Shown here: positions 1,405 to 63,291 of the stretch, piece after piece
Numbering within the stretch: position 1 is the stretch's first letter
Layout of the letters: each line of letters opens with the position of its first letter
Source of the DNA: Ligula intestinalis
Lineage: Eukaryota > Platyhelminthes > Cestoda > Diphyllobothriidea > Diphyllobothriidae
Assembly: GCA_036362985.1 (NCBI GenBank)
Contig: JAYGXS010000003.1
Span: 5,983,751-6,047,750, forward strand
DNA length: 64,000 bases
Reading direction: 5' to 3'
Notes under the pieces: generated by a model
What the model saw: the letters and a program-made list of their open reading frames with translations, nothing else
What the model was told of the DNA's origin: nothing
Database searches by the model: none
Position numbers and translations under genes: made by a program

Positions 1405-1528
1405 GTAGCATTGTTTTTTACAATATATGTCTGGTTTTTTTAGAGGTCAGACTTGGAGGGAGGAGAGTAGCATTGTTTTTTACAATATATGTCTGGTTTT
1501 TGGAGTTCAGACTTGGAGAGAGGAGAGG
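1405..1528 (-). repeat. 62-bp tandem duplication in LINE-A 3' UTR
   Basis: Two adjacent near-identical 62-bp units (1405-1466 and 1467-1528), each starting GTAGCATTGTTTTTTACA and ending in a GGAGAGA-like stretch. The second unit runs into the last codons of ORF2. Confidence 0.75.
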
Positions 1529-4416
1529 AGACGCATGTAATTATCCAAGCGTTGTTTGTACATTTGAAGAGAAGTTGCCTCCACAACTGACTGTGGAAGG
1601 TTATTCCACTGTTGTATGACACGTTGCGTGAAGAATTCAGAGCGGAGGTTTAGCTTGGACATTTTCGTGCGCAGCTTCATTGTGTGCCCACGGAGATGAG
1701 GCGAGAGGTGCCACTGAAACATGTCTTCGAAGCGTAATCCTTTCTCAAGACCGTTTATTATCTTGTAAACTAGGATAAGATCCCCTCTTTGTTGCCTGTA
1801 ATGCAGAGGGAATAAATTTAGGCATGCCATTCTATCTATGTAAGTGTGGTTTTTTAGACCTCTTACTAGCTTTGTTGCCCGACGCTGCACTTTCTCCAGA
1901 CATGCTGTGTCCTTTGCTAGCCATGGCCGCCACGCCTGTATGCCATACTCTAGGTGTGGCCGAACAAATGTGCCGTACACTCTGCCAAAGAGATCTTCAT
2001 CGAAGGCTAGAAACGCCCTTTTGATAGCGTGCAGCACTCCCGTGGCTTTATTTGCAGCTTTGACAGACTGTAATGAGGGCTTCAGATTACTCTGTATCCA
2101 AATGCCGAGGTCTTTTTGCGTAGATGCTACGGGAATTTGGATATTTTTCAAGTGATATGTCCTGCTGCTCTGGGGGATAGGGTAGTTTGTTGGACGCAGG
2201 TGGAGGACGGCACACTTTTGCACATTGAAATCCAGCAGCCATCTCTCAGACCACGTCTGCAGTTTGCAAAGATTATTTTGCAGAGCATCTCGGTCGCTTG
2301 GGCGCTTAATGACCTGCCAGAGTTTAACGTCATCGGCGAACATGATTTTACCGCAGTCCAGTTCTTGAAGGCTGTCATTTACATAGAGAATGAAGAGTAG
2401 AGGACCGAGAACGGAGCCTTGAGGAACCCCACTAACTACGTCCACCCAGTCCGATTTATCCTCCCCGATGCAAACGCGTTGTTTTCGACCGACTAAAAAT
2501 GACCTGATCCAGTCCAAAATTTTTCCCTTGATGCCAAGAACGCTCAGTTTGTGCAAAAGGCGTTGATGGGGCACGCTGTCAAAGGTTTTGCGGAAATCGA
2601 TGTACACTACGTCCACTTCGAAGCCCTCTTCTAAAGCACTTGTCCAGGCCTCAATTGAAGTCAGTAAATTTGAAAGGCAGGAGCGCCCTTGCCGAAAGCC
2701 ATGCTGAAAATTTTGTATGATGTCACTTTCATCGCAAAATCTTAGTATGGCCTGCTTCACAAGGACCTCCATCATTTTGCAGGAAAGGCAAGTCAAGCTT
2801 ATGGGCCGAAAGCTGTTTGTAGACATCTTGCTTCCTCCCTTATATAACGGTACGATGTTGGCCGTCTTCCATTGCAAAGGCAAGTCCCCTGTTCGCATGG
2901 AAAGCTCGAACAGAATTGAAAGAGGCACCGCTAGCTCGGTCGACAGTTCTTTAAGTATCAGTCCAGGGATCCCATCCGGTCCAGGAGACTTGTCTGGTTT
3001 GATGTGACTGAGGACATGTCTTACGTCTGCGACAGAAAAGGTAACAGTTTCAATAACGGCTGTACCTTCGCCCACTTCTACTCCCAAATTATCGTCGGGG
3101 GATTCCATCGTAAACGCCGATCTGAAAAACTCTGACAATAACTCTACTTTCCGCGGTCCTTCCGTTACTACGTTCCCGAGGTTATCCTTTAGAGTTGCAA
3201 TGTCGTCCCGGTGCTTCCTTTGACTGCGGATGTATCCATAAAACTTCTTTGGACATATTGTGGCTTGTGTTGTAAGTTGACGCTCAAAGGCAGTTCTAGA
3301 ATTTCATATTTCCTTACGGCATATATTTCGTTGCGCTTTATATTCGGCAAGTGATGTTGGATCTTGAAGATGCTCGTACTTTTTCCACAACCTTTGTTTC
3401 TTCTTCATGGCCCTTTTTATCGGCTGGTTGACATATGGAGGTCTGGCACATGGTCTTATTACTTTCATTGGGCAATGGACTTCAATTAAGCGCTCTACAG
3501 TCCCCTGGATATGCTGCCATAATTCATTTGTATCGTTCGTACTGGGTAACCAGTTTTCTGCGGAAGCGGTACGTCTCATTTCTTCAAAATCGGCTTTCCA
3601 AATATTTCTGCGCCTCTTAGTTTGCAATTTTGGAGACAATAGGTAACACACGCAGGTAAAAGCAACGTGGTCGCTTAGCCCAAGTGGCGGTTGTGAGTTC
3701 ACTTCCCTTATGATCCCCTCTTCTTTACTAAAACCGAGATCTAGACAATTTGATCTTTGGCCTTCTCGCAGTCGGGTTGTGAAGTCTATGTGTTGAATGA
3801 GATATTCGTCCAAAGAAAACTGAAGTAGTTGATAATTGAAAGGTGCTGCTGCGGCCTTTACTCCAGGCCTCATCCAATCGATGCCAGGAGCGTTGAAATC
3901 ACCCAGGAGTAATAGATTTTCCTGTTTACAGATAACCGTCAGTGAACTTAGCAGTTCTACGTCGTCACTTTCGCTGGAGCCGGGAGGCCGATAAACAACG
4001 CATATATTGAGTGCCGGATGTTGCCTTATCTTAATTTTGCATGAAATTATTTCATATCGTCGTAGGGCTATGTCTGCGATTTCCCTCTGACAACAGGAAA
4101 TTTCATTGGCTACATAAAGTGCCACTCCTCCGCCCCTACGTTGAGATCTGTCGCAGCGGAACAGTTGATAGCCTTCAATGCTGACTTCGCTGATCCCTAT
4201 TGCTTCGGTCAGCCAAGTCTCTGCTAATGCAATTATATGTGGTTTCTGCTCAGATACTATTGTTTTGAGTTCGTCAAGTTTATTGAAGAGACTCTGACAA
4301 TTGGTATAATAGATTTCGAGGCATCGGCCACTATTGCTTGTGGTATCTTCTAGAACCGGCCGGTTGACCTTGGTTAAGTTTTCCGCCTGACTACTTCCGG
4401 CCAAAGAAAATTTCGT
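1507..4416 (-). pseudogene. LINE-A ORF2: APE endonuclease + reverse transcriptase (one in-frame stop)
   Basis: This polyprotein makes the nick and copies the element RNA at the target. The endonuclease comes first: YTNCQSL, then ALAETWL (catalytic E), RGGGVALYV, YRPPGSS, LLGDFNAPGIDW and LSDH. RT follows with SPGPDGIPG, HGFRQGRSC, DFRKTFDSVPH, GVPQGSVLGPLL and the catalytic FADD, then the thumb. The frame is open throughout except for one TGA at 3304-3306 between endonuclease and RT. The frame opens only at 4416, just after a TGA, and contains no ATG before the endonuclease core; the first Met lies after the GDFNAPGIDW motif. Expression must therefore depend on ORF1 translation (see 4407-4413). 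Length without the stop would be about 970 codons, normal for CR1-like ORF2. Confidence 0.8.
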
Positions 4417-5474
4417 TCAATGTGGACTATTTTTCCTCCTTTTATTTGTAGGCCGGTTTTGCCTTTGTTCTTTCGGTCGTTTAGATCGTTTTTCAAAAGT
4501 CGCATTTTCCTGCGTTCCTTTGGTTCATAATCCGGCTGAAAGAAAACTCCAGCATACATGGTCCGCAGAGACGATTTTCTTTCCAGCATAAGCCGTGTTT
4601 GCGCTTCGGTGTCCCAAATGACCTTTAATGGTCGTGGCCGAGAGCTTGAACCATTCGGCGGCTGATCCTTGCCTATTCTAAATGTTTTGAGAATTTTTAC
4701 AGATTCAGTGCCCTTTAGCAGTGATTTAGCGTACTGCCGAACGAGACCTCGATCGTGCTCCACCTTATCCCCAGCAACTGTAGCCGTTGATTCTGGTGCA
4801 CCCTGTATCACTATATGTTGCTTACGGTTTGCTCGAGCTTGGGCCGTGGTCACATCGCACTGAAGCAGAGTAGCAGCAGGGGTTTCGAAGTCTAGATCTG
4901 TGAAAGATTCTATGGAAATTTTGCTGGTAGCATTTACTTCTAAGTTACCGTTTGCACTTTGGTCCGATTCAACTTCCTTTTCTTCAGAAGTCTCCTCTTG
5001 GAATGGTTGTCTTCCTTTTTGTTCACATGGCGTGCTCCAAGTTCTTTCTCGCGATAAAACTGAGGGCTTTGGTTGGTCTTTTGCAGGCCGTTCTGCATCC
5101 GCCTTCTGCTGGCGTATACACCTGCGTTTGGCCCTGCTGGACTCGTGGTTTCCTGGTTGAGCAACCACTGACCTGTCCTCTGCATGCGCCGCATCCTCTT
5201 GGAGTGGTTGCCTTGCTTTTTGTTCACATGGCGTGCTCCAGGTGCTGTCTAGCGATAAAACTGAGGGCTTTGGTTGGTCTTTAGCAGGTTGCTCTTCAGC
5301 AGCCTTCTGCTGGCGTATGCGTCTGCGTTTGGCCCTGCTGGACTCGTGGTTTCCTGGTTTATCAACCACTGACCTGTCCTCTGCATGCGTTGCATCCGGT
5401 GGTGTTGTCTTATTGTGCTTTATGAGCACTGCTAGTATCTCCGCGTAAAATTCAAGGCTTCCCTCTAAACGCAT
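4374..5474 (-). CDS. LINE-A ORF1 protein, RNA-binding type with duplicated basic region
   Basis: 366 codons from an ATG at 5474, but the same frame stays open upstream to about 5760 without another ATG. That upstream stretch includes CNQVNLC and CDGC, so the 5' part may be mutated or start differently. Residues 27-93 and 94-160 are a tandem duplication, each with the basic cluster SSRAKRR(R/C)IRQQK, which could serve nuclear entry or RNA binding. From about residue 215, IVIQGAPES, VRQYAKSLL, FRIGK, RPRPLKVIW and FFQPDYEPKERRK follow the pattern of the RRM plus C-terminal domain of L1-type ORF1 proteins. The end overlaps ORF2 in the -1 frame. No zinc knuckle is seen in the C-terminal half. Confidence 0.7.
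   Translation of the reverse strand: MRLEGSLEFYAEILAVLIKHNKTTPPDATHAEDRSVVDKPGNHESSRAKRRRIRQQKAAEEQPAKDQPKPSVLSLDSTWSTPCEQKARQPLQEDAAHAEDRSVVAQPGNHESSRAKRRCIRQQKADAERPAKDQPKPSVLSRERTWSTPCEQKGRQPFQEETSEEKEVESDQSANGNLEVNATSKISIESFTDLDFETPAATLLQCDVTTAQARANRKQHIVIQGAPESTATVAGDKVEHDRGLVRQYAKSLLKGTESVKILKTFRIGKDQPPNGSSSRPRPLKVIWDTEAQTRLMLERKSSLRTMYAGVFFQPDYEPKERRKMRLLKNDLNDRKNKGKTGLQIKGGKIVHIERNFLWPEVVRRKT
4407..4413 (-). promoter_or_regulatory. Candidate -1 ribosomal frameshift heptamer A AAT TTT
   Basis: In the ORF1 frame the codons read ..CGA AAT TTT CTT.., so the last A of CGA plus AAT TTT forms an X XXY YYZ heptamer in the correct phase. Slipping back one base gives TCT TTG GCC, exactly the ORF2 frame. 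The ORF1 stop (TAA, 4374-4376) follows 30 nt downstream, and the ORF2 frame has a TGA at 4417-4419 just upstream, so the site lies in the only window where a switch can occur. I did not fold the downstream RNA. Confidence 0.6.
4995..5396 (-). repeat. 201-bp in-frame tandem duplication in LINE-A ORF1
   Basis: 4995-5195 and 5196-5396 encode two 67-residue copies that differ at roughly a dozen positions. Both carry HAEDRSVV, PGNHESSRAKRR, AKDQPKPSVLS and TWSTPCEQK. The length is a multiple of three, so the frame is kept. Confidence 0.85.
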
Positions 5475-5699
5475 TACGCGCGTGGATAGGTTAAGACATC
5501 CATCGCAATCTGCACGCGCAGGCTTATTTGGCTGGGTGGTGTTGGGTTCTAAGACGGTTGGTGAAAGGAGATGCGTTTTTGCATAGTGGGTGGTCTGGGA
5601 TTTCGTACTCGTTATTGAAAGCGCTTCGGCTATTTCTGGGAGTACCTTGTCAAAGGTTGTACGCGGCGGCTTGCATAAGTTAACCTGATTACACCCGTT

Positions 5700-5815
5700 A
5701 GAGTATATCTTAGCGACTTGGCCTTCAGGGTGTGAGCTGGTGGTGAAGTCGGCAGAGCGTCAGACATTATAAAATGAGGTCCGGGGTTCGAACCCAGCCG
5801 TCGACGAACATTTTC
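5700..5815 (+). other. tRNA-like relic (possible SINE head)
   Basis: The stretch GTCGGCAGAGCGTCAGAC followed about 20 bases later by GGGGTTCGAACCC looks like the D-arm and the T-arm/B box of a tRNA. The anticodon stem does not pair well and no clean acceptor stem is seen, so it is not called a functional tRNA gene. It overlaps the 5' edge of LINE-A. Confidence 0.35.
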
Positions 5816-5819
5816 TTTC

Positions 5820-6386
5820 AGCTAGCAGAGATGGATCGTGCACGTTAGCGTTACCCATGCTATTGGAAACTATATTAGAGTGCATTAATTCAAAGTCTGC
5901 AATCAACCGGCCGTGCTAATATAGATAGCGAAAAGATTTGCTTGTGCAATCAATTTCAACAGTCAAAATTTGTAATGTGAACGACTCAGCCTTTGTTGTA
6001 AGGAGTTCTTTGCACTGTAACAATCAGATTCAGAAGCAGCGATGTTGTTCTTAGGAGCGAGTGAACTTCCAGACTTGTGCTGATCGTAGGGATAACTTCC
6101 AGAGCGTGGTATAATCCGCGGTCCAGTTAGATTGTTCAAGCGAAGGATTCGTCCCACTCAGAAAGGATATTTCCAAAGGGCAGGTAATACGCAGTCCAGT
6201 TAGATTGTGAAAGCGAAGGATTCGTCTCACTCAGAAAGGATATTTCCAAAGGGGAGATAATACGCAGTTCCTTTGTCAGTTTTTATAGCCAGATGTGTCT
6301 TCTACACTAAGGTAGAGACTAAAAACCTCGTGAGCGCAAAGAGCTTAAATTCGAAACCAATTTCAAATGCAGCATTCTGCCTCTTT
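5820..6386. other. Spacer with 73-bp tandem duplication, no gene seen
   Basis: No recognisable protein. The only structure is the tandem duplication at 6117-6262 described separately. Confidence 0.4.
6117..6262. repeat. 73-bp tandem duplication
   Basis: Copy 1 (6117-6189) and copy 2 (6190-6262) both contain GTCCAGTTAGATTGT, AAGCGAAGGATTCGTC and CACTCAGAAAGGATATTTCC and differ at about six bases. Confidence 0.85.
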
Positions 6387-6417: not shown

Positions 6418-7156
6418 ATGTTTATCGTTCCATTTTACAGGCACTTGTAAAGAGTTGATAATGCACCTCTTGGGCGCCTTCCAACACCTCGAAGACCGGA
6501 AAAACCTAACACAAACTCTCTATGTTGCAGCCAGTATTGGTTTTTTTTCAGGTTTTGTGTTTTTTCAATACTGGGCGAGATAAAAGAGTTTGTTTCAAGT
6601 GAAAAAAACCTGCCTTCAAAGGTATGATACAAACGGAAAAAAGGACAGTTTTAAGCTGATTTGACTCATCAGCAGGAGAAATGTTGCATAGTTCGAGACG
6701 GAGAGGGTTGGCACAAGAACACAGTGTTCTCAGTCTTCCTTCAATGGTTTTCGGCAAAAGTTGTGCGCTATTGGCTGAAGGGTTAGCAGACTGCGGGCTG
6801 TTGCTTCAGCAGCATTATCTTCAGCATGAAGCCTGGCGGGGTTCAAAGTCCACGAACGCCATCAGAGTGAAAGAGAGATTCCACTGAGTCAGCACCCAAA
6901 CTTCGTGAAAGTTGTCCTGAATGTAGAAAACTTGTTATAGCTCTCTTAAACATTGGGGAGCTTTGCTGGGTTTTCATACTTTTGGGCAGATTATTCCAGA
7001 TTTATGTGGCGTTTACTGAAAAGAATTGCCGGTACTTAACTGTTCGTGCCATAGGAAGAAATAAAAATACGTCTCGATGACTGGCGCGTCGAGAGTGCTC
7101 AAGCTGCCTTATTGTACTAAGAGGATTAAAGGTTTGACCATTCAAAATTTTAAACA

Positions 7157-9110
7157 CTAAAATAGACCCTTCTGCAATCTACGAAGCCATAGGGGATCCA
7201 GCTTTATAATTTCGCACCTTTGTTGGTAGGCTAAGTTACGGTGTTCTGTGGTGAAAACTCTTCTAGTGAAGAAGTGCTGGACCGATTCTATTTTCTTTCG
7301 TTCACTAGTGCGCAGAAGACTGAATAGGGGCGAGCAGTATTCAAGACTATGTCTCACGTACATATTATAAAGGCTAGTTCTAATCTTGATAGTCTTAAAA
7401 TTTCTAAGGATAAATCCGGTGGTTCGGCGTGCTTTCGAGACTATCAGGGCACAGTGCTCTGACAAATTGAGACTATTAGAGTAGGATATGCCCAAATCCT
7501 TGATAACTCCTGGGACATTTAGTTCGTGGCCGTCAATGCTTAATTCCGGTTGATGATCGTCGCCAACAACCATAACGGAACAGTTGTGCCATGAAAGGTT
7601 GAGGCGCCATGTGCAACACCTCTGGGCGAAGGCCTAAAGATCCTTTTTTAATCAGCTCGAGCACTATATTGTGATCTGCCGGTTTATATCGATAAGCGAA
7701 TTTTAAGTCATCAGCGTACACGAAGGGTCTGCCATACGGAAAACAATCTGAAACGTCGTTGACAAACAGGCAAAATAGGAGCGGACCCAGTACACTACCC
7801 TGTGTAACTCCACTCCTCACATGCGTGGGGTTGGAGATAACATTAGAAATTTTTACTCGTTGTGTGCGAGCATCCAAATAGGAAGATATGAAGTTCAGAG
7901 GCTTGCTACCTATGCCGAAGGAGGCCAGTTTCAGAAGGAGGAGGTTATGATCGACCCGGTCAAAGACCTAATTAAAATCAAAATGGACGCTATAAGTGGA
8001 AAAACCGCTGTCTCTAGATTACAGCACATAATCAAAGAAAGAGAGCTGGCAGGTGTCACAGGATCTTTTCTCCAGAAAGCCATGTTGAGCTGTATTAAGC
8101 AGATTGTTCTCTGTCAAGTGACGCATCATTTTTTCTTTGATCGAGGTCTCCAAGATCTTCGAGGCTGCGGGAAGTGTATTTATTGGCCCAAAGTTGACGA
8201 ATGATGTCGATCGGCCAGGCTTGCAAAAAGGCATTATGTGTGATTCCTTCCATAACGAAGGAAAGGTTTCGCTCTCAAGAGCAAGATTAAATACCTTACA
8301 AAGAATAGACGGAAAGATATCATTCGCTTCAGCTTTTAGAATGCTAACTGGGACGCCATCTGGTCCTGGACTATAGGATTGACGATACCGACGAATGAGT
8401 ACAGTCACATCCCAGACGGTAAAACTTATGGTTTCGAGTATGGCACCCGTCCAAGCCTGGATAACCGGAGGTGCAGCGAACGAGCTTTCACGAAAAGTTT
8501 TGGATAGGAACGCATTGAAGCTATCGGTGGTCAACTTAGCGTCAGCTATGGGGTTTCCTAAATCATCTTGAAGAATGGGGTGTTGTGTTTTCCTCTGCGC
8601 TTTTACTGTACGCGAAAAGAGTTTCGCAACATTAAGGGAAGAATTTTCAGCAAAGTGAGCCTCACCGGCTATCTGCTTTTCTTCGGAGAGCTTCTTAGCC
8701 TGCTCAAGAATCAGTGTGATCAAGGGCAGAACGGAAGTGTCGTTCAGCCGATGCAAACGACGAGAGTGTTTACGCAGCCTACGACGGAAAGACAGAGGAA
8801 GATAACTTCATCTTTGACATGTATTGCATTCTTACGGAGGACAAAGTGGAGGATGAGTGGATCCAGCACTTTGCACAGTGCATCGGTACAAACATTTACA
8901 TCCAAACATTTGAAAATTTCAGACCAGTCGAGAGCGTTTAGATGTGCCAGTAGGTCAGCCGTGTTTGCTGATCGGAAGTCATGATAAAAACTATACTTTT
9001 GGGAGAATGTTTCATCCGCCTCCAGCTCTAGTTCACTAACAACTGTAAGATGGTCTAAAATCCCAAGTGCGTCTAAGGATGAAATTGAAAGTGGTTCGCA
9101 TCCTCTTCAA
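7157..9110 (-). pseudogene. LINE-B1 endonuclease end and reverse transcriptase (frameshifted)
   Basis: Read on the minus strand: the endonuclease end and linker (about 9110-8760, LDHLTVVSEL...ALDWSEIFK), then RT with SPGPDGVPVS, HGFLEKRSCDTCQ, LASFGIGSKP, GVTQGSVLGPLL and catalytic YADD, then the thumb SLEYCSPLF and LWLRRLQKG. At least three frame breaks split it (about 8019, 7877/7573 and 7157). The last break is a base loss relative to copy 2 within a run of A. Dead. Confidence 0.75.
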
Positions 9111-21074: not shown

Positions 21075-22373
21075 TTTATTTAGTAATCAAAATTTGGAGG
21101 TGGGTAATTTTGTTGGAAGTTTGGAGAATAGCCACTAACTGGATCTGGACAATTGGCATTAGAAGGCTAAGTGGGGATAGCTTAAAGCTGCAGGATGATA
21201 GCTCTGTGATATCGACAGGCCATAGGGATTAGTACCGTGATGAGCTTTCTGATAGTTACCGGGAAATTGGGAAAACCAAGACGGGAAATAGAGGCTGGTG
21301 GGCGAGGTAAGTTAACTATGAGGATTAAGCGGTGGAAAGCCTGGCCCAGTTTGATAGTTGTGACAAGTAGGGTAACCTACATGTTTGTTAGCTTCCTGTT
21401 GTATAGGCTTATTTATTGTTTGGGAAAACTGCATGCTCACGGTTGAGTTCCGGATCCCACTCTTTCGACGACCTGAATTGGGTGATTTAATAGAAGGTTT
21501 GGGATGACTCTGTTCGAGTATCAAAGCCATTGGTCTACCTGAAGAAGAGGTTTTTTTGGAATTTTTAGGAGGGCTACCAGAATAATTATCTATGGCAACT
21601 GGGTAAGCATCTAAGGTAGAAGTAGATGGGAATGTCTGGTGACTTCAGGGGGAGGAGACGGTTGCAGTACTGGGGAGCAGTAAACCAGGTTTGCCAGGAG
21701 TAAGAGTACATGGCTCGCTAGGCTTCTTAGGGCTACGACCAGGAACTTGAGCTGGTTGTGGTGAATTTAAGACTTTATTAGAAGAACTCGACGCTATTCT
21801 TCGCTCCATTGGGTTGAGATCATGACAAAGGAAATACTTTGTATTCTTTAGATATTTGGAAACAAGCTCTTGTTGTTCAAAAATGGAGTCTTTTTCAATT
21901 AGAGCAAATAGCTTGACAAAAACTGGTGGGTTGTTACTGCGAGATGACAGTCTAATAGCGTCTGCTATTTTAGAGTTTAATCCGCAGGAGTAGAGGAAAT
22001 GAATGGCAACTTCCAGTGACCGAATTGATTTCGGAATGTTTTTTCAGAATAAAATTATACGTCATTTTTGCCTGTCCTGCGACTCACTTGTGACCAAATT
22101 GACCAGAGTATCCAATCGTTTGCATACCTGGGAGGAAACTGCAGAGATATTCCCGTCAAATAGGGTCCCAAGGATTGAGAGAACTGACCCAAATTTCAAC
22201 ATAAACTCGTTGCAATTTTTCATTGCAGACAAATCTATTTGCTCAGCATTCAGATCTGGCTGAATACTGATGTCAGGCTGAAGACTGATATCAGTTATGA
22301 TGTTCGCTTTTCTCAGACACCGCTTGGGTTTGGACGTCTGAGGATTTCTACTAAATGAAACTGTTGCCTTCAT
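21075..22373 (-). pseudogene. LINE-E3 ORF1 remnant
   Basis: The start MKATVSFSRNPQTSKPKR is at 22373. A following region with YNFIL-like residues and a Ser/Pro-rich tail (PNSGRRKSGIRNSTVS) matches ORF1 of copy 4. Frame breaks throughout. The role in the family would be RNA binding. Confidence 0.55.
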
Positions 22374-28720: not shown

Positions 28721-28775
28721 CTTGAGTAATCGAACTAGGGTTATCTTTATTTAGTAATAAAAATTTGCAGGTGGG

Positions 28776-39568: not shown

Positions 39569-40126
39569 TGTTTATTATGCCAGTTTACAGGCAATTGTAA
39601 AGAGTTGGTAATGCACCTCTTGGGCGCCTTCCAACACCTCGAAGACCGGAAAAAAACCTAAAACAAACTCCTTATGTTGCAGCCAGTATTGGTTTTGTTT
39701 CAGGTTTTTTGTTTCGTCAATACTGGGCGAGATTAGGAGTTTGTTTCAAGTGAAAAAAAACCTGCCTTCAAAGGTATGATACAAACGGAATAAATGTACA
39801 GTTGTAAGCTGAGTTGACTCATCAGCAGGAGAACTGTTTCATATCGTTTAAAAACATTAGTTCCAGACGGAGAGGGTTGGCACAAGAACACAGTGTTCTC
39901 AGTCTTTCTTCAATGGTTGTCGGCAAAAGTTGCGAGCTATCGGCTGGAGGGTTAGCAGACTGCGGGTTGCTGCTTCAGCAGCATTATCTTCAGCAGTGAA
40001 GCCTGGCGGGGTTCAAAGTCCACGAACGCCATCAGAGTGAAAGAGAGATTCCACCGAGTCAGCACCCAAAATTCGTGAAAGTTGTCCTGAATGTAGAAAA
40101 CTACTTATAGCTCTCTTAAACATAGG

Positions 40127-41431
40127 CTAGTTTTGCTGGGTTTTAATACTTTTGGGCAGCTTATTCCAGATTGATATGGCATTTACTGAAAAGAATTGCC
40201 GGTACTTAACTGTGCGTGCCATAGGAAGAAATAAAAATACGTCTCGATGACTGGCGCGTCGAGAGTGCTCAAGCTGCCTTATTGTACGAAGAGGATTAAA
40301 GGTTTGACCATTCAAAAGTTTAAACAGTAAAAATAGACCCTTCTGCAATCGACGAAGCCATAGGGGATCCAGCTTTATAAGTTCGCACCTTTGTTGGTAG
40401 GTTAAGTTAAGGTGTTCTGTAGTGAAAACTCTTCTAGTGAAGAAGTGCTGCACCGATTCTATTTTCTTCCGTTCACTAGTGCGCAGAAGACTGAACAGAG
40501 GCGAGCAGTATTCAAGACTAGGTCTCACGTACATATTATAAAGGCTAGTTCTAACATTGATAGTCTTAAAATTTCTAAGGATAAATCCGGTGGTTCGGCG
40601 TGCTTTCGAGACTATCAGGGCACAGTGCTCTGACAAATTGAGACTATTAGAGTAGGATATGCCCAAATCCTTGATAACTACTGGAACATTTAGTTCGTGG
40701 CCGTCAATGCTTAATTCAGGTTGATGATCGTCGCCAACAACCATAACGGAACATTTGTGCCATGATAGGGTGAGGCGCCATGTGCAACACCACTGGGCGA
40801 AGGCCTGAAGATCCTTTTTTATCAGCTCGAGCACGATGTTGCGATCTGCCGGTTTATATCGATAAGCGACTTTTAAATCATCAGCGTACATGAAGGGTCT
40901 GCCATACTGAAAACAATCTGAAACGTCGTTGACAAAAAGGCAAAATAGGAGCGGACCCAGTACACTACCCTGTATAACTCCACTCCTAACATGCGTGGGG
41001 TTGGAGATAACATTGGAAATTTTTACTCGTTGTGTGCGAGCATCCAAATAGGAAGATATGAAGTTCAGAGGCTTGCTACCTATGCCGAAGGAGGCCAGTT
41101 TCAGAAGGAGGAGGTTATGATCGACCCGATCAAAGGCCTTAGTAAAATCAAAATAGACGCTATAAGTGGCAAAACCGCTGTCTCTAGATTGCAGCACATA
41201 ATCAAAGAAAGAGAGCTGGCAGGTGTCACAAGATCGTTTCTCGAGAAAGCCATGTTGAGCTGTACTGAGCAGGTTGTTCTCTGTCAAGTGACGCATCATC
41301 TTTTCTTTGATTGAGGTCTCCAAGATCTTCGATGCTGCGGGAAGTGTATTTATTGGCCTAAAGTTGTCGAATGATGTCGATCGGCCATGCTTGCGAATAG
41401 GCATTATGTGCGATATAACCACAAAAGGCAC
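40127..41431 (-). pseudogene. LINE-B2 reverse transcriptase, open but 5'-truncated
   Basis: 434 codons without interruption: FDNFRPINTLPAASKILE, HGFLEKRSCDTCQ, YFDFTKAFDRVDHN, LASFGIGSKP, GVIQGSVLGPLLFCLF, catalytic YADDLK, WRLTLSWHKC, then the thumb (SLEYCSPLFSLL, LWLRRLQKG) and an end WNKLPKSIK. The C-terminal part is intact, unlike copy 1. The first fingers and the endonuclease are missing, so it cannot act alone. The start Met is a chance codon at the truncation. Confidence 0.8.
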
Positions 41432-41763: not shown

Positions 41764-42305
41764 TGTAATGAGAAGCTGACGACAAAGGACGGGGACGAGT
41801 ATTCGAGACGAGCCACCGAGCAACCAATATGATAGTCAGTCCAAAAAGAAAAGTCAGTTATCGGAGATGAGTGTTTTGAAGGTCCTGGGTACAAAAATAA
41901 TCTTCAGGGAGAACCTAGTACAAAAATAAGCTAAAAGGGAGTACTGTCTTTGGGAAGAACGCAGCTGAATCTTTGACCGGACGGGACAAGCCGCAACGAC
42001 GTTGGGAGCGCGCTGGAAGTCGGGAGTCCAGTTCCTCAGTCGGCCTCGTTATTTATCCCTGCCCGTCAAGGTCATCCAGGGAGCGGCCATTGTAGTACAA
42101 GATAAAACAAAGGAAGTGATCAATTATCTTAGTGATTATTATTTATTTATTATTATTATTTAATTAAATATAAACATGATAATAGTTATAGATTTCCATG
42201 ATCCGTTCTATAAATACGGGGAAGGTTCGCGCGCGCCCCTTAAGGGGCGCGTTTCCAGAACGTTCGGCGCGTCACTCACGTGCTTCTATCCCACGTGCCT
42301 CTACA
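41764..42305 (-). repeat. gypsy 3' LTR
   Basis: On the minus strand it begins TGTAGAGGCACG and ends CTTCTCATTACA, so TGTA...TACA ends are intact. It includes a TATTTATA box on the minus strand (about 42209-42216) and a 20-bp perfect palindrome (42232-42251). Confidence 0.85.
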
Positions 42306-42320
42306 TTGCTCCCCCCTTCG
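42306..42320 (-). other. Polypurine tract
   Basis: The minus strand reads GAAGGGGGGAGCAA directly before the 3' LTR, the position where plus-strand priming starts in LTR elements. Confidence 0.65.
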
Positions 42321-45300
42321 AAAGGGACGCTGTCCTCAGCGGCATTATCCAGGTCAACGATGGGTCCACCGTCGAAGGGTATTTCGACCTCCCCGCCACC
42401 GGTTGTTTGCCATCGTATACCTCATGTGTCGCAGTACCCCCGTCAGCAGGTACCACAAGGTAGTCCTCAACAGGAGGATTACTGGTCTCATATGGCGGAC
42501 AGGGGATGCCATTCATTGGTGCCCCAGGCTTCAGCCGGTTGAAATGAACCGTAAAGGGTGCGGCATGCGGCCGGTCGTGGGGGCGGATGAGGCATGTTGT
42601 ATCTGATAACACCCGAGTGACGTCATACGGACCGACCCAAGTGGGGTTAAATTTGGCCGGTACTCCTACGAGGGCCGCGTAATTGCGCACCCATACAACA
42701 TCTCCCTCCTGATAAGGCGTCCCATGGGCTAGGCTGTCGTAAAACGCTTTCTGATGTCGCTGTCCTTCTTGCAGATGCAAGCGAACCTCTTCAGACGCAA
42801 TGCGCAGGGTTTTCCTGACCCGGGATGCATACGTATCGACATGTTCAATCTTAGCGGCCGACGGAAGGACTAAATCTTCAGGGAGCTGCATCTCCCGTCC
42901 GCAGGTGAGAAAGAATGGTGTGTAGTGAGTAGTGGTGTTTACCGTAGATCGGTAAGCCAGAAAACAAGCTGGTAGAACTTCATCCCAGGTAGTCGGTGGG
43001 TGACGATCGATAAATGCTTTTAAAAGGTTTATGAGGGTGCGATTGGTTCGCTCAACTTGGCCGTTCCCTTGCGGGTGATAGGCCGTGTTCCGAGTTTTCT
43101 TAATGTTCATGAGACGACAGAAGTCGTGGATGACGCTATTCTCAAACGAGGAACCACGATCAGAATGCAATTGATCCAATGCACCCCAGCGGCAAACCCA
43201 ATGGTTGAAAATGGCACGGGCGACTGTCGGGGCTTTGGCATTAGGTAACGGGACAGCCTCAGCCATCTTGGTGTAGAAATCAACCATGACAAGGATGAAC
43301 TGATAACCATTATCAGAGGGAGTGAGGGGCCCAACAAGATCAACGCCTACCCGCTCATTGTAATAGCCAGTCTTAATCGGCTGAAGGGCCGCCCGTGAGG
43401 ACCGACCAGGAGACTTAGAGCTGAGATAGAACTCGCATGCACGAATCCTATCTTGAATGTCACGTTTTTGATTGGGCCAGTAGTAACGCCGGCGGAGAGC
43501 CCACTCAGTCTTGTGGATGCCAGAATGGCCTAAGTCGGTGTGCACTCCGTCAATAACATCATCAACCATAGACAGCGAAAGGACGAGTCGTCTGGGATAT
43601 TGGTCGCCGTCGCGGTAGAAAAGGACGCCATTCTCAATAAATAGCTTGTTCCACAACCCGTGCATGCATTTTGTCTCGTAACTGAGGCCACTAAGCTCAA
43701 CTTTACTGAGAGGTCGGGCATCGGCAACCTTGCGGTTATAGACGGGTGAGATGTGGGGTTCGTCCCTCTGCGCAGCAGCCCAAAGTAGGCACTGATCGCT
43801 CTGGAGGGTGATAGTGGAGATAGCGATGTCCATACACGAAGGACAGTCCCCATGTGGGCGGTATGGTTTACGGGACAAGGCGTCAGCGTTGCCATGTGAC
43901 CGACCAGGATGAAAGATGCACGAATAATCGTATTCGGCAAGCTTCTCCTGCCACCGAGCAACCTGTCCCTCGGGGTGCTTGAAATTCTGGAGCCATGTTA
44001 GGGCACTGTGGTCCGTGCGTATGATGAAGGGCCGAAATTGGAGATAAGGGCGGCACTCCTCAACAAAGTAACCTAGGGCGAGCATCTCCTTGCGTGTGAC
44101 GCAATAGCGGCGCTCGGCCCTCGTGAGTAAGCGACTGAGGTACTGAATAACACGCTCGGTGCCGTCTGGTTGTTGTTGAGAGAGGACGGCACCAATTGCG
44201 GTCTCGTTAGCATCAGTGTCGAGCACAAATTTCCCCGCATCGCTGGCAGTATTAGGAAATACCAAGATGGGGCTAGAACAGAGCTTGTCCTTAAGCGACT
44301 GGAAGGCATTGACACAGGCAGCAGTCCACTTAAACTTAACATCTTTCTGCGTCAATTTGTGGAGGGGACCGGCTATATGGGCGTAGTCCTTGATGAAACG
44401 TGTGTAGTATGAGGCTAGCCCTAGGAAACTACGAAGTTCCGTGACGTTTGCCGGGGTGGGCCAGTCGCGGATATGCTTCACCTTATCTTCGTCAGTCTCT
44501 ATTCCAGAGGACGAGACGACGTGGCCTAAGAATTTGACTCGAGGTCGTAAAAATACACATTTCGAGGGTTTAAGAGTGAGCCCAGCCTCTCGAAGACTGT
44601 TGAATACAGCCCGAAGGTTTTGCAAATGGTTTTCAAAGTCTTTGCCTTACGCAATAATGTCATCCACGTATACTAGACAAGAATTAGGTAAGAGCTGGGC
44701 TAGGACTTGATTCATGAGACGTTGGAATGTGCTGGGCGCATTGGCTAAACCGAAGGGCATAGTCTCAAACTCATACAGGCCAGAGGGAACGGCAAAAGCA
44801 GTCTTCTCGCGATCCGAGGGCCGCACCTCTACCTGCCAGTAGCCTGAGGCCAAGTCCAAGATAGAAAACATAGTGTTACCAGCTAGGGTGTCGAGGGTCG
44901 CATCTATGCGAGGCAAGGGAAAAGAATCTTTCTTAGTAACGGCATTAAGTTTCCTGTAGTCGATACAGAGTCGCATCGACCCATCCTTCTTTTTGACGAG
45001 CACGATGGGTGAGGACCACGGTGAGTGAGAAGGACGGATGATGCGACGACTAAGCATGTCCTCGATAAGGTCATCTAACTCCTTTTGATAAAAGATAGGC
45101 AAGCGACGGGGCGGAACCCGAATAGGGCTCGCATCACCCGTGTCTATACAATGCTGAGTGGCATTGGTGTGGCCAGAAGATTTCCCGTCCCAGTCAAAAA
45201 TATCCTTAAATTCGCTGAGAAGGTTTCGAAGCCTATCGGCATTAGCGGGGTTGAGGTGCTGAGGTACTAAGTCAGCAAGGCTAGGAGTGAGGGTAGACGC

Positions 45301-46499
45301 GCAGACTGAATGGGGACTACGGGAGGATCGGCTGAATGGGACGTCAACTGAGGACGTCCGGAGGAGTCTGTTCCCGAAGTCCAGGGAGCACCCAAACTTC
45401 TGGAGAAAATCGACGCCTAAGATACAATCCCATGTTATATCAGGGGAGACAATAAACTGATGGCAGAAACTAGAACCAGAAAGGGTCAAGGAGAACTCCA
45501 CGAAACTAGTATAACTAAGACTAGTGCCATTAGCCGTGTGTAAAGAAAAACGAGGATTAGGAATATATCTAACACGGGTTTGGAACTCTAGGAAGGGCTG
45601 CTGACGTATCAATGGGCAACCAGCGCCAGAGTCAATGAGACAGCAAAAGATGGTAGAGCCTACAGCAGCTACAACTAGGGGACAAGAGGAAGAGAAAAGG
45701 CTTGAAACTACAATATCAGAGAGAATGAGGCACTCACCGTCACCAGGGTTAGGTCCAGCCTCGATTGCCATAAGTGGACGAGGGCCAGGGAGTCCGTTTG
45801 GCCGCCGGGGTTGCTGACGGCGCCAGCGGTCCCGACGAGGGAACGAAGACCCACAAGAGCACCAATGGCCAGGAGTCTGAGTACCAATGGTGGCCGACGA
45901 CCGAATGGCTGCGACCGCAAATTGGCCTCGTGGGGAACCACAGGCAGACTGCAGAGCCTCCTCGCGCCGGGCAACTTCAATAGCCGCATCCAGACTGGTG
46001 GGTTGTTGCCGAAGGACAACTTTCCGGACCTCAGGGTCTGACAGGCCATTGACAAATTGCTCCATGACCATATAGTTGAGGGAGTTCAGGTCCAAGTGTG
46101 GATACGCCTGTTTGGCCAGGAGACGGAGAGCTTGTTGGTATTAAAGGACGCTCTCCAAAGGTCCTTGAAGTCGCTGGCGGAAGTCAGAGACGAGGATCCA
46201 GGAAGGAGTGGCCTGGCGCAGGACACTGCTCAAGGTCTTGAAAAGGTCGTCCACGGATTGGGTCGATGAGGCACCAGCAGCAAGGGCAAGATCGTAGACA
46301 TCGTCGTCCAACTGGGCCAGAATCGTTCGGGTCCGGGCCGTCTCATCCACTCCGTCGAGGTAGTCATGCATGCGTGCTTCCCAACGCGGATAGTCGCAAG
46401 AGAGCGTCAGACGGGAAGGCGGCCGGCGGGAGGACTGAAGGCTAACCTGGGACAGTTGAGCCAATAACTTCTCCAGAAGGTTGTTGGCCGTGGTAAAAA

Positions 46500-46511
46500 C
46501 CGCTGCCACCA
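46500..46511 (-). other. Candidate primer binding site
   Basis: The minus strand reads TGGTGGCAGCGG, three bases inside the 5' LTR end. TGG is the complement of a tRNA CCA end. I could not assign the tRNA. Confidence 0.4.
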
Positions 46512-46514
46512 AAG

Positions 46515-47056
46515 TGAAATGAGAAGCTGACGACAGAGGACGGGGACGAGTATTTGAGACGAGCCACCGAGCGATCAATATGATAGTCAGTCCAAAAAGA
46601 AAAGTCAGTTATCGGAGATGAGTGTTTTGAAGGTCCTGGGTACAAAAATAATCTTCAGGGAAAACCCAGTACAAAAATAAGCTAAAGGGGAGTACTGTCT
46701 TTGGGAAGAACGCAGCTGAATCTTTGACCGGACGGGACAAGCCGCAACGACGTTGGGAGCGCGCTGGAAGTCGGGAGTCCAGTTCCTCAGTCGGCCTCGT
46801 TATTTATCCCTGCCCGTCAAGGTCATCCAAGGAGCGGCCATTGTAGTACAAGATAAAACAAAGGAAGTGATCAATTATCTTAGTGATTATTATTTATTTA
46901 TTATTATTATTAAATTAAATATAAACATGATAATAGTTATAGATTTCCATGATCCGTTCTATAAATACGGGGAAGGTTCGCGCGCGCGCCCCTTAAGGGA
47001 CGCGTTTCCAGAACGTTCGGCGCGTCACTCACGTGCTTCTATCCCACGTGCCTCTA
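46515..47056 (-). repeat. gypsy 5' LTR
   Basis: Nearly identical to the other LTR. The inner end reads ..CTTCTCATTTCA, one base different from TTACA. The outer end lacks the terminal TG and passes straight into the 96-bp repeat through the shared bases CTCTA. Confidence 0.85.
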
Positions 47057-62000: not shown

Positions 62001-62977
62001 TATGGGTAAGAACTAGAGTGAGAAAGATTTTTACAAAGCTGCCATCAAAAAAATATGTTGTGAGAGTTGCCTTTGTGAAATATAATGCCATCAAGTCTTC
62101 TTTTAAAATCAGCAATGGTGTCGGCGGTAACCGTCTCGCTTGCCAGTGAGTTCCAAGATCGTACCATTCGTTGACTGAAGAAAAACTTCCTGAGGTCCAA
62201 TCGAGTGTATAGGTGACTTGTGCTGGTAACACTTGAAGAAATCCTCCGGTCTCAGAGAGGAATCGTAGGCCGGATTATCCGAAATGTCCAGAGTAGGTTA
62301 CACTGTGAGCCAAGGGAACTAATGTAAGCTTTATCAATCTGTCTCGGTACGGTAGTGCTTAACACCGTCGACCATCTTCGTCACTCTCCCTTGCACCTGT
62401 TGGCGTGATAAACATCTTTTTTTCATCTCCAGTGCCCAAACTTGCTTTTGCTAAATTTTAATTTTTCAATCACCCACCGTTTTTATACCTGTTTATTTGT
62501 TCTCATCCTCCCCTAAATGCAGCGGTGGAAATTAACTACGAGTTATATAATCCGACTATACTGTCGATAGAGGTACTTCTGCTGGAGAAACGGTTAGACA
62601 AGAACCTGCTCTTCCTACGCGATGCTCCCCTCGCAGAGAGCAGGTACCCCTTTGACCTAGCGCCCGTACCCCACGAGAAGGGAGCTCCTGTCCCCGTGAA
62701 CGATAAAAAGGTACAGATCTGCTTAATGCGGGTTAAGTTCTTTCATTTGTGTGTCTGTTAGTTGCCGTTGCTCTCGTCTAAAGGTTAAGTGAAAGTGCAA
62801 GTCAGTTGCCAGCCACCTGTGCTCGATAACGCCTTGGTGTTCTTGCATCTGCGAGAGATAGAGAGCAGTGGATGCCGCGCAAGTCTCCTATAACTATAAC
62901 TATTGCAGTAGTAGAATAAGTAGTAGTAGTATTAGTAGTAGTAGTAGTAGTATTAGTAGTAGTAGTAGTAGTAGAAT

Positions 62978-63032
<55 letters not shown>

Positions 63033-63291
63033 TCCAACCTCTGGCTGTACCGGTAATACGTATTCGTGATACTTGCCCGTGATGCTGTTTCTCTTGTCCT
63101 CATTTAATTTGCCCAATTGCATGTAGGTTAAACTACTCCCTCGACCTTGGCATTTCCAATGGCAACTTCATGGATATCGAGGGATCGATCCCGACTCACT
63201 CTACGGCCAACTCACTCCAGAGGAACTGAGGGAAATTGAGAAAAAGGTGGATTACGTTGACCGCTACGACCTCATGAAGATGTACCGGTAA
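53049..63291 (+). CDS. MRPL19: Mitochondrial ribosomal protein L19 (bL19m), six exons
   Basis: A structural protein of the mitochondrial large ribosomal subunit. Exons: 53049-53106, 53157-53346, 53399-53526, 60756-60890, 62523-62710, 63127-63291; 287 codons plus TAA, close to the roughly 290 aa of animal orthologues. All introns are GT-AG. Exon 1 (MVSSGLGLRLLRLLPTNFV) looks like a mitochondrial presequence: Arg and Leu rich, no acid. The conserved core is RDRLRERLERREMMLRRR, HLKIPEFYVG / SVLAVTISDQ, FVGICIERINEGLWSNFTL, RNVVERT / AVEINYELYNPTILSIEV, LLEKRLDKNLLFLRDAP, PVPVNDKK and LPRPWHFQW. Introns 1 and 2 are 50 and 52 nt, intron 3 is 7.2 kb and contains two antisense genes, and intron 5 contains a microsatellite. 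Intron 1 ends GAAGAAG, so exon 2 may start at 53157 or 53160 (one residue difference). The last codons CGG TAA also form a donor-like CG|GTAAGA, so a further exon is possible; as read, the protein lacks a short C-terminal tail seen in vertebrates. Confidence 0.85.
53654..54706 (-). CDS. Diverged RhoGAP-like protein, paralogue 1 (nested in MRPL19 intron 3)
   Basis: 350 codons, single exon, ATG at 54706 (the frame extends five codons further only from a GTG). The N-terminus has an acidic stretch IEEEDELL. From about residue 79: APVILVALLEALDKVVPPV, LSPGELAQMLQLLFLRFERP, MSPPQKAILATFLKYCQRW, then IHCLSGLFCGGLIGIP. The order and spacing resemble RhoGAP helices (PPIV..., a loop normally holding GIFR, LLKRFLRELPEPL, NRATLRYLL, NLAIVFGPTL). 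Where the arginine finger should be there is KILNG, so GAP catalysis is unlikely. The C-terminal LWHSITF is shared with paralogue 2. That it is a paralogue is clear from sequence; the RhoGAP link is inference and untested. It lies antisense inside MRPL19 intron 3. Confidence 0.7.
   Translation of the reverse strand: MPKRYLREQNSLEVSNDTSVSKSLEIEEEDELLQIFLNSSLDTAAEEERKLALLGPKPVTMWPRSLRFDSLTPEPTNCTAPVILVALLEALDKVVPPVDKILNGLTEESMRNCDSLLGHLVSDVGKTNRMLCDHLLASLSPGELAQMLQLLFLRFERPVFEALPELCQFIHRRIFYMDPRMSRCRAKDVVFTNGSKQVQQSVDRMSPPQKAILATFLKYCQRWCQAHVGARLREDGKRNSVSEYTEAIHCLSGLFCGGLIGIPRAYISASFRSDDAGSVNALKRDVFTFLLTMTSIELWHSITFSQLVAEEKLPTRDVVAATKEGPDAKSITVTISGSATPQKTKSFNWI
54722..56004. other. Intron 3 spacer of MRPL19
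   Basis: No gene recognised. A short (GTT)n tract lies at 55896-55915. Confidence 0.35.
56005..56830 (-). pseudogene. Jockey-like LINE, RT C-terminal remnant
   Basis: Minus strand: WGQDTETLVTIYRATGKA, SDTSWAKVQRVENAALRIA, TGCVNMTNVDQLYQETQVL, then after stops the 144-codon stretch with ISRYNPNRVLNAPPP, CPDCLLPSHTTCHLFDY and LWLRPDEVAEFLNL. The Q(R/T)V(E/Q)NAALRIATG and CPDC...H..HLFDC motifs are the normal C-terminus of Jockey-type elements. The core RT is missing. Confidence 0.75.
56831..57595. other. Intron 3 spacer, no feature seen
   Basis: No gene or repeat recognised. Confidence 0.3.
57596..57765 (-). repeat. SINE-1, minus-strand copy
   Basis: Reverse complement starts GGCCCGTGACTCAATAGCAG (A-box region) with the B-box-like GAGTTCAAATTTC and ends in the common tail GGTCTCCCTTATTTTTTG. 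Confidence 0.65.
58219..59649 (-). CDS. Diverged RhoGAP-like protein, paralogue 2 (nested in MRPL19 intron 3)
   Basis: 476 codons, single exon, ATG at 59649. Acidic, Ser-rich N-terminus (TTEEDDEEDEFDSTDSS). From about residue 54: KVQVPPIVEGLLETIEGRVP, FTTGELVRMLQYYLSNLDRP, SMDRARLLLLARVMLKLRLW, NFLGKLFSRCVIFIPAYLRA. These align piece by piece with paralogue 1 and with RhoGAP helices; LQNLTNG stands where the GIFR arginine finger would be. An insertion of about 140 residues, Asn/Gly/Ser rich, precedes SVFMLLMCSLGVEYWHRLSF, which matches LWHSITF in paralogue 1. The C-terminus is strongly basic (KIRRRRRKRRPKTRRKRK), suggesting binding to acidic lipids or nucleic acid. RhoGAP relation is inference; no exact function is assigned. 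Confidence 0.7.
   Translation of the reverse strand: MALGTRAGSCLSADSTTEEDDEEDEFDSTDSSPPEDRQGTPIDWSKGHHRRKKVQVPPIVEGLLETIEGRVPPLQNLTNGMNARSQAEVHAMLQVVLRDLGQPEPNVQQYSNNKTITTPPQMTEEGRAAYLDKFTTGELVRMLQYYLSNLDRPVFEPSKRLCQLAVLNDFIPSLTRKVNNTRILAEMQECCRSMDRARLLLLARVMLKLRLWMTKHVAYRVMSTSKKSSEHVLLEASNFLGKLFSRCVIFIPAYLRASMIYRGGMSVKEARSLFVETIPEAPPAPLPTLHRHPFTSVDSDSLDNATVFLARTRRTKTMEQDNNNQYGSGGGIHQNSSNYGFSLDVDITDDRRDSIGTNYTALCSLNTENFSRMRIAWVNMDNMQRLNTPRGTDRSPAGGGAAHHPAAGGRRAMLSYGSDIRHSVFMLLMCSLGVEYWHRLSFQAITRKIRRRRRKRRPKTRRKRKGCPPGVAVCKL
59650..60755. other. Intron 3 end with SINE-1 pieces
   Basis: Contains a partial minus-strand SINE-1 (about 59965-60040) and a minus-plus pair (about 60380-60535) joined near 60486. 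No gene recognised otherwise. Confidence 0.45.
60380..60535. repeat. SINE-1 head-to-head pair, decayed
   Basis: Minus-strand part with GGCCATTTCGGGCTTATTAACC, then a plus-strand part with GAATAAGCCGAAAATGG and CATTCCAGTCTCCC. Same arrangement as at 51885 and 52450. Confidence 0.6.
60946..60977. repeat. (CT)n microsatellite
   Basis: About ten CT units followed by an imperfect CT-rich run, in MRPL19 intron 4. Confidence 0.8.
60978..62039. other. MRPL19 intron 4, no feature seen
   Basis: No gene recognised. A 79-codon minus-strand frame at 61654-61893 is likely chance. Confidence 0.3.
62040..62410 (-). pseudogene. LINE-G RT C-terminal fragment (second copy)
   Basis: Matches 700-1090: the minus strand reads SLASETVTADTIADFKRR and DRTRLDL/LRKFFFSQRM over shifted frames. 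It lies inside MRPL19 intron 4. Confidence 0.6.
62892..63032. repeat. (AGT)n microsatellite in MRPL19 intron 5
   Basis: About 40 imperfect AGT units with a few ATT/AAT interruptions. It creates long Ser or Thr repeats in chance frames on both strands; none is a gene. Confidence 0.95.

What the first reader, a model, noticed from the sequence alone, without database searches (positions are those of the whole stretch)
4374..4419. LINE-A may make its endonuclease-RT by -1 ribosomal frameshifting
ORF2 lies in the -1 frame of ORF1. The overlap is limited to 4374-4416 by a TGA (ORF2 frame, 4417-4419) and the ORF1 TAA (4374-4376). Inside it is A AAT TTT (minus strand, 4407-4413), in phase with ORF1, matching the X XXY YYZ slippery rule. 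ORF2 has no ATG before its endonuclease catalytic core. Most LINEs are thought to start ORF2 by separate initiation or reinitiation, so a virus-like -1 shift in a CR1-like LINE would be notable. A heptamer could occur by chance, but here phase, direction and window all fit.
Basis: partly seen in the sequence, partly recalled or inferred. Interest (0 to 1): 0.75.

Follow-up and report, generated by a model that had tools for sequence, protein, structure and literature searches.

The report
Tapeworm LINE with retrovirus-like frameshift site
A mobile element (LINE) in a likely tapeworm genome has its second gene one base out of step with the first and without a start codon before the endonuclease core, and ribosomes likely reach that gene by slipping back one base at a virus-type slippery site, although several relatives of the element likely carry an ordinary start codon at the same place.

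Summary
ORF2 lies in the -1 frame of ORF1; A_AAU_UUU (4413-4407) is in phase and is the only such heptamer in the 461-codon ORF1 segment (chance in the overlap about 0.05); ORF2 has no ATG before 3873. The copy is dead (TGA at 5762-5760 and 3306-3304).

For it: LINE-C, a second CR1-like LINE of this window, also has a -1 overlap, no ORF2 ATG before the endonuclease core, and the same heptamer in both readable copies. A related LINE from elsewhere (L001) has U_UUU_UUA eight bases before a hairpin. Against it: LINE-A shows no downstream structure above shuffles. The heptamer is absent from the nearest relative (P0126, 80% identical) and, at its place, from three other ORF1s. In two relatives back-translation puts an ORF2 AUG in the same -1 frame, over a conserved ORF1 Trp codon where LINE-A reads UUG. 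One LINE-C copy has a -1-frame stop right after the slip site.

I commit narrowly to -1 frameshifting (0.45) over AUG-coupled initiation lost here (0.33). No second LINE-A copy could be read: the genome search did not complete. Side result: three diverged LINEs end ORF1 in UGA CUA, in frame with an ATG-less ORF2.

The parts
4374..5885 (-). LINE-A ORF1, ATG 5885-5883 to TAA 4376-4374, interrupted by TGA 5762-5760
   Evidence: 93% identical to P0001
5760..5762 (-). in-frame TGA in ORF1 of this copy
1507..4416 (-). LINE-A ORF2 frame (endonuclease and RT), -1 relative to ORF1, interrupted by TGA 3306-3304
3304..3306 (-). in-frame TGA in ORF2 of this copy, between endonuclease and RT
4374..4416 (-). 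ORF1/ORF2 overlap
4417..4419 (-). TGA that closes the ORF2 frame upstream
4407..4413 (-). slippery heptamer A_AAT_TTT in phase with ORF1
4401..4404 (-). TTGG: ORF1 Trp codon TGG (4403-4401); in the ORF2 frame TTG (4404-4402), where relatives P0129 and P0145 have ATG by back-translation
28760..28766 (-). LINE-C copy 1: A_AAT_TTT in phase with ORF1, whose TAA is 28753-28751; ORF2 in -1 from 28775
21089..21095 (-). LINE-C copy 2: A_AAT_TTT at the same place; the -1 frame reads TGA directly after it

Best explanation
In this likely tapeworm CR1-like LINE the endonuclease-RT frame lies -1 to ORF1 and has no ATG before its endonuclease core, and it is likely reached by a -1 ribosomal slip at the in-phase heptamer A_AAU_UUU at the end of ORF1. 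Shown: geometry, phase, missing ATG, and the same heptamer and geometry in LINE-C of the window. Inferred: that tRNA-Asn and tRNA-Phe re-pair one base back, that the product is a low-frequency ORF1-ORF2 fusion, and that this served the family while it was active. The copy in the window cannot make a full-length product, because both ORFs carry a stop. Within the wider clade the entry to ORF2 likely switches between an AUG in the same -1 register and AUG-less recoding.
For: Only in-phase heptamer in the 461-codon ORF1 segment, inside the 43-base overlap, chance about 0.05. No ORF2 ATG before 3873, and only near-cognates ACG 4416, TTG 4404, AAG 4371 and ATC 4314 in the first 150 bases. LINE-C: -1 overlap with the same heptamer, chance 0.027 in copy 1, and no ORF2 ATG before the endonuclease core in either copy. 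L001: -1 overlap, U_UUU_UUA at 480-486, hairpin from 495 (8-base spacer), z -2.16, 9 of 200 shuffles as stable, heptamer chance 0.044. P0126, the nearest relative, also lacks an AUG at the Trp place. A -1 shift for ORF2 is stated in a review for TRE5-A and TRE3-A (PMC5911963, passage).
Against: No downstream structure beyond shuffles in LINE-A (z -0.23 and 0.31) or LINE-C (z 0.16). Heptamer not conserved: P0126 has no dipeptide that could be XXX-YYY in its stretch of overlap; P0002 has T-F, P0004 S-H and P0005 R-F at the place. AUG-started ORF2 in two back-translated pairs. LINE-C copy 2 has a -1 TGA right after the heptamer. L011, another -1 overlap, has no heptamer. A wider fold of L001 gives only z -1.02, and L001 also has an ORF2 ATG at 522. 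One dead LINE-A copy only.
Confidence: 0.45

Rival explanations
1. ORF2 is normally started at its own AUG, which lies in the -1 frame over the conserved Trp codon near the end of ORF1 (coupled termination-reinitiation or internal initiation). This copy or subfamily carries UUG there, and the heptamer is chance.
For: One DNA sequence can encode P0004 and P0129 (18 of 18 positions) and P0005 and P0145 (20 of 20) only with ORF2 in -1 and its ATG over the ORF1 Trp codon; 0 of 3000 randomised peptides fit in each case. tblastn puts P0129's Met 1 at 4404. P0134 has Met where P0133 and P0006 have Leu. Coupling is documented for SART1 (PMC5972666, passage).
Against: LINE-A has TTG and P0126 has Leu (CTG or TTG) there, although P0126's ORF2 is open for 1004 codons. 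The AUG of P0129 and P0145 lies 17 and 19 codons before the ORF1 stop, far for a ribosome that reinitiates after termination. The phased heptamer would be a 5% coincidence.
Confidence: 0.33
2. Nothing functional: a decayed copy that has lost its ORF2 start (for example an upstream AUG like that of P0126), with a chance heptamer.
For: Two nonsense codons; 5% chance of the heptamer; P0126 has a Met 34 codons upstream of the Trp place.
Against: The geometry and the heptamer recur in LINE-C; the last residues of ORF1, including R-N-F-L-W, are identical in P0001.
Confidence: 0.15
3. ORF2 gets its start codon from a spliced leader: flatworm leaders end in AUG, and trans-splicing into the ORF1 tail would put that AUG in the ORF2 frame.
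For: Flatworm leaders carry a 3'-terminal ATG with few exceptions, and partial leaders at LINE and LTR loci are read by those authors as possible traces of trans-spliced retrotransposon transcripts (PMC12582326, passages). In-frame AGs end at 4387 (CAG) and 4369 (AAG), downstream of TTTTCTTT (sequence).
Against: The first AG after that tract (4395-4394) is out of phase and would give AUG UAG (sequence). No RNA data here.
Confidence: 0.05

Closest known systems
TRE5-A and TRE3-A of Dictyostelium (APE-type non-LTR elements)
   Same: Two ORFs; a review states that ORF2 needs a -1 frameshift (PMC5911963, passage)
   Different: Different host group; I did not compare their sequences or slip sites
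CR1 LINEs (bird protein P0130, Mycteria americana)
   Same: Endonuclease-RT ORF2; LINE-A RT part 39% and endonuclease part 29% identical
   Different: Its ORF1/ORF2 junction was not examined at DNA level; no phylogeny was made
SART1 (silkworm non-LTR element)
   Same: ORF2 translation tied to the end of ORF1 (PMC5972666, passage)
   Different: Uses an overlapping stop-start site; LINE-A has no AUG at its junction
Paramecium non-LTR elements
   Same: Authors suggest recoding for ORF2: +1 shift or reinitiation (groups 1 and 2), stop readthrough (group 3) (PMC5405496, passage)
   Different: +1 or in-frame, not -1; a ciliate clade of its own
HeT-A (Drosophila telomeric non-LTR element)
   Same: A non-LTR element said to need frameshifting (PMC5009743, passage)
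   Different: The shift serves its gag gene; HeT-A has no RT of its own

Membership tests
Programmed -1 frameshift cassette | Downstream ORF in the -1 frame with an overlap | tested here: met
   4416-4374
Programmed -1 frameshift cassette | X_XXY_YYZ heptamer in phase inside the overlap | tested here: met
   4413-4407; chance about 0.05
Programmed -1 frameshift cassette | Stimulatory structure 5 to 9 bases downstream (spacing recalled) | tested here: not met
   Folds equal to shuffles; a GC stem about 4 bases away is 1.1 kcal/mol above the minimum. Pseudoknots were not searched
Programmed -1 frameshift cassette | Heptamer conserved in relatives | tested here: not met
   Absent at the place in P0126, P0002, P0004 and P0005; P0001 has the same residues but its DNA was not seen; other copies of LINE-A not available
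Programmed -1 frameshift cassette | Measured frameshift product | not testable with these tools
   Needs a reporter or proteomics
Stop-start coupled reinitiation (SART1 type) | ORF2 AUG at or near the ORF1 stop | tested here: not met
   No ORF2-frame ATG before 3873 in LINE-A; met in relatives P0129 and P0145, 17 and 19 codons before the stop
CR1-clade LINE | APE-type endonuclease and RT in ORF2 | tested here: met
   PF14529, PF03372 and PF00078
CR1-clade LINE | RT groups with CR1 in a phylogeny | not tested
   Only pairwise identity to a bird CR1-like protein, 39% over the RT part
CR1-clade LINE | Characteristic 3' end with short tandem repeats (recalled) | not tested
   3' end not mapped

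The most novel reading that the evidence does not exclude
CR1-like LINEs of animals reach ORF2 by virus-type recoding as a rule rather than by a separate start: -1 slips at canonical heptamers (LINE-A, LINE-C, L001) and UGA CUA stop-codon readthrough (L005, L006, L008), with repeated evolutionary switches to and from an AUG placed in the same register. ORF2p would then be an ORF1-ORF2 fusion made at a set ratio, like Gag-Pol.
Probability: 0.35. Interest if true: 0.8.

Novelty: new member of a known kind. Interest (0 to 1): 0.5.

Why it matters
How many LINEs translate ORF2 is unsettled. If animal CR1-like LINEs use Gag-Pol-like recoding, the ratio of ORF1p to ORF2p is set by a short RNA signal that can be tested directly, and a parallel with retroviruses follows. 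The protein pairs also show the -1 register kept while the entry signal changes, which makes the clade a natural experiment on how recoding signals arise and are lost.

Tried and rejected
Downstream stem in LINE-A: folds no better than shuffles; an enforced GGCCGG/CCGGCC stem is 1.1 kcal/mol above the minimum. LINE-C downstream fold: z 0.16.

Other copies of LINE-A: tblastn of seven tapeworm-type proteins against the window found no second LINE-A junction. Viral contigs gave no relative (7 stretches matched a pattern; 8; 2; none confirmed). Plasmids gave 11 records and phages 1, all under 30% identical and covering at most 44% of the query.

Gene models that join ORF1 and ORF2 (9 rows) were not taken as fused ORFs: 7 skip part of the sequence as a predicted intron would, and 2 (P0006, P0183; also P0177) read on in -1 after GVFF, which an extra T in that genomic copy would explain.

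The count of ORF2 proteins whose start lies at most 5 residues before, or after, the conserved endonuclease Asn (37 of 120; 68 start earlier; 15 not classified) was not used as proof: gene callers force a start, and decayed copies are included. Dipeptides that could be slip sites also exist in P0006, P0177, P0183, P0145, P0134 and P0128, but their DNA was not seen. P0003 was left out of the tail comparison because its end diverges.

The L001 chance value was run without the ORF1 stop codon (490-492), so its overlap was counted 3 bases short.
Full report
What is there. On the minus strand lies a LINE: ORF1 from ATG 5885 to TAA 4376-4374, and an ORF2 frame from 4416 to 1507. ORF2 has APE-type endonuclease and RT domains; ORF1 matches no Pfam family. 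The best ORF1 relative is P0001 (93% identical), an uncharacterised Schistocephalus solidus protein in UniRef; of the four weaker ones three are named as Sparganum or Spirometra and one (P0004) has no name. So the host is likely a tapeworm near S. solidus; this is an inference. The copy is dead: TGA at 5762-5760 and at 3306-3304.

Geometry. ORF2 is in the -1 frame of ORF1, the overlap is 4416-4374, and A_AAT_TTT (4413-4407) is in phase with ORF1. It is the only in-phase X_XXY_YYZ in the 461-codon segment 5759-4377. Codon resampling gives a 5.0% chance of one in the overlap (5.3% and 4.4%). ORF2 has no ATG before 3873.

Relatives of LINE-A. Protein searches gave P0126 (80% identical over 99% of the query) and several tapeworm ORF2s at about 45%. 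For ORF1 and ORF2 proteins I asked in which register and placement one DNA sequence could encode both (5 ORF1s against 8 ORF2s, shifts of 1 and 2). Three of the 40 combinations fit fully, all at shift 1: P0004 with P0129 (both listed with a longest contig of 5048 bases; 18 of 18 positions, ORF1 stop included) and P0005 with P0145 and with P0167 (20 of 20 each). In all three ORF2 is in the -1 frame and its ATG overlaps the Trp codon of ORF1's L-W or I-W. None of 3000 randomised peptides fit, for each of the two pairs tested. tblastn independently places P0129's first Met at window 4404, where LINE-A has TTG. P0134 starts MDRTDP where P0133 reads PLDRTDP and P0006 PLDQADP, the same place with ATG replaced by a Leu codon. 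So the -1 register is kept, and some relatives likely start ORF2 at an AUG there.

P0126, the nearest relative, fits neither simple story. Its ORF2 frame runs about 50 codons into the ORF1 tail: 20 of 36 positions around and before the Trp are compatible with P0002 and 15 of 36 with LINE-A. It has Leu (CTG or TTG) at the Trp place, a Met 34 codons upstream, and no dipeptide in that stretch that could be an XXX-YYY slip site. At the heptamer's place the ORF1 residues are N-F in P0001 and LINE-A, T-F in P0002, S-H in P0004 and R-F in P0005. The heptamer is therefore not conserved. Dipeptides that could be slip sites exist elsewhere in other relatives, but their DNA was not seen.

Structure. RNA folds of 81 and 121 bases after the heptamer are no better than shuffles (z -0.23 and 0.31).

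A second LINE in the window. LINE-C has two copies with a readable junction (85.5% alike over the 221 bases compared). ORF1 ends GCA AAT TTT TAT TAC TAA in copy 1 (heptamer 28766-28760) and CCA AAT TTT GAT TAC TAA in copy 2 (21095-21089). ORF2 of copy 1 is in -1, and neither copy has an ORF2-frame ATG between the heptamer and the endonuclease core (sequence). Chance for copy 1 is 2.7%. In copy 2 the -1 frame reads TGA directly after the heptamer. Which state is ancestral cannot be told from two decayed copies.

LINEs elsewhere. A scan of prokaryote assemblies with a profile of 17 ORF2s returned 19 loci, the better ones being, by inference, eukaryotic LINE contigs in bacterial or archaeal assemblies. 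L001 (39% identical to the bird CR1-like protein P0130) has ORF2 in -1, open from 459; ORF1 ends CGT TTT TTA GTG TAA, that is U_UUU_UUA at 480-486; and a hairpin begins at 495 (44-base fold: z -2.16, 9 of 200 shuffles as stable; 73-base fold: z -1.02). Chance of its heptamer is 4.4%. It also has an ATG at 522, 29 bases after the ORF1 stop. L011, more distant, has a 13-base -1 overlap and no heptamer. In all, three of the four families with a -1 junction readable as DNA carry a canonical heptamer.

Other ways in. L002 and L004 (one family) have an ORF1 TGA and ORF2 in the same frame, with ATG only at the endonuclease core. L005, L006 and L008, 39 to 50% identical to each other in ORF2, all end ORF1 in TGA CTA with ORF2 in frame and no ATG before the endonuclease core. 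CTA makes up 26 of 972, 15 of 957 and 12 of 720 codons of their ORF2s. That UGA CUA is a readthrough context is recalled, not from a call. A search for retrotransposon, readthrough, UGA CUA and LINE together found 0 papers, and one for non-LTR retrotransposon, stop codon readthrough and ORF2 listed 3, none on this subject by title.

Literature. A review says TRE5-A and TRE3-A need a -1 frameshift for ORF2 (PMC5911963, passage). Paramecium LINE consensus sequences suggest +1 shift or reinitiation, or readthrough (PMC5405496, passage). HeT-A (PMC5009743, passage) and SART1 (PMC5972666, passage) are the other recoding or coupling cases seen. Flatworm spliced leaders end in AUG with few exceptions (PMC12582326, passages). 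The Jockey-superfamily ORF1 paper (PMC4120745) has no hit for frameshift, readthrough or overlap. I searched for CR1, non-LTR, ORF2, frameshift and overlapping together and saw 4 listings, none on this subject by title.

Judgement. The AUG in relatives shows that frameshifting is not the only way in this clade and may not be LINE-A's. But LINE-A and P0126 both lack that AUG, and canonical heptamers in LINE-C and L001 raise the prior for -1 slips. I put frameshifting at 0.45, AUG-coupled initiation lost here at 0.33, chance in a decayed copy at 0.15 and leader splicing at 0.05. These are judgements, not computed. A set of LINE-A copies would decide it, and I could not get one.

Noticed in passing
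L005:1438-1443, L006:1523-1528, L008:1088-1093: Three diverged LINEs (ORF2 39 to 50% identical) in two MAGs labelled Poribacteria end ORF1 in TGA CTA, with ORF2 continuing in the same frame and no ATG before the endonuclease core: candidates for UGA CUA stop-codon readthrough.
   Followed up: partly
L001:459-530: CR1-like LINE with a -1 overlap, U_UUU_UUA at 480-486 and a hairpin from 495: a stronger-looking frameshift signal than LINE-A's.
   Followed up: partly
L002:353-355, L004:1230-1232: One LINE family, two copies: ORF1 TGA followed by ORF2 in the same frame (TGA CAA), with the first ORF2 ATG at the endonuclease core.
   Followed up: partly
L003:26-3925: LINE in a Bathymodiolus symbiont assembly with one 1300-codon ORF that holds a 2A-like DTETNPGP motif near its N-terminus; the 2A label is recalled.
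   Followed up: no
proteins P0006, P0177, P0183: Three tapeworm gene models read on in the -1 frame directly after the conserved GVFF of ORF1, where ORF1 proteins have FFQP. An extra T in a T-rich run of those genomic copies, or slippage when the RNA was made, would explain it.
   Followed up: no
window 41764-46814: LTR retrotransposon: terminal repeats 41764-42063 and 46515-46814 are 97% alike over the 300 bases compared; two pol-like ORFs 46140-44647 and 44646-42301 follow one another in the same frame across one stop. A paper title on Saci2-like LTR elements of diphyllobothriidean tapeworms was seen in a listing only (PMC12471100).
   Followed up: no
window 6827-9106 and 39997-41431: Another LINE family (LINE-B), two copies about 95% alike in three of the stretches compared; the junction to ORF1 was not found.
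   Followed up: no
window 62892-63053: Array of AGT/ATT trinucleotide repeats, read on the minus strand as a threonine-rich ORF.
   Followed up: no
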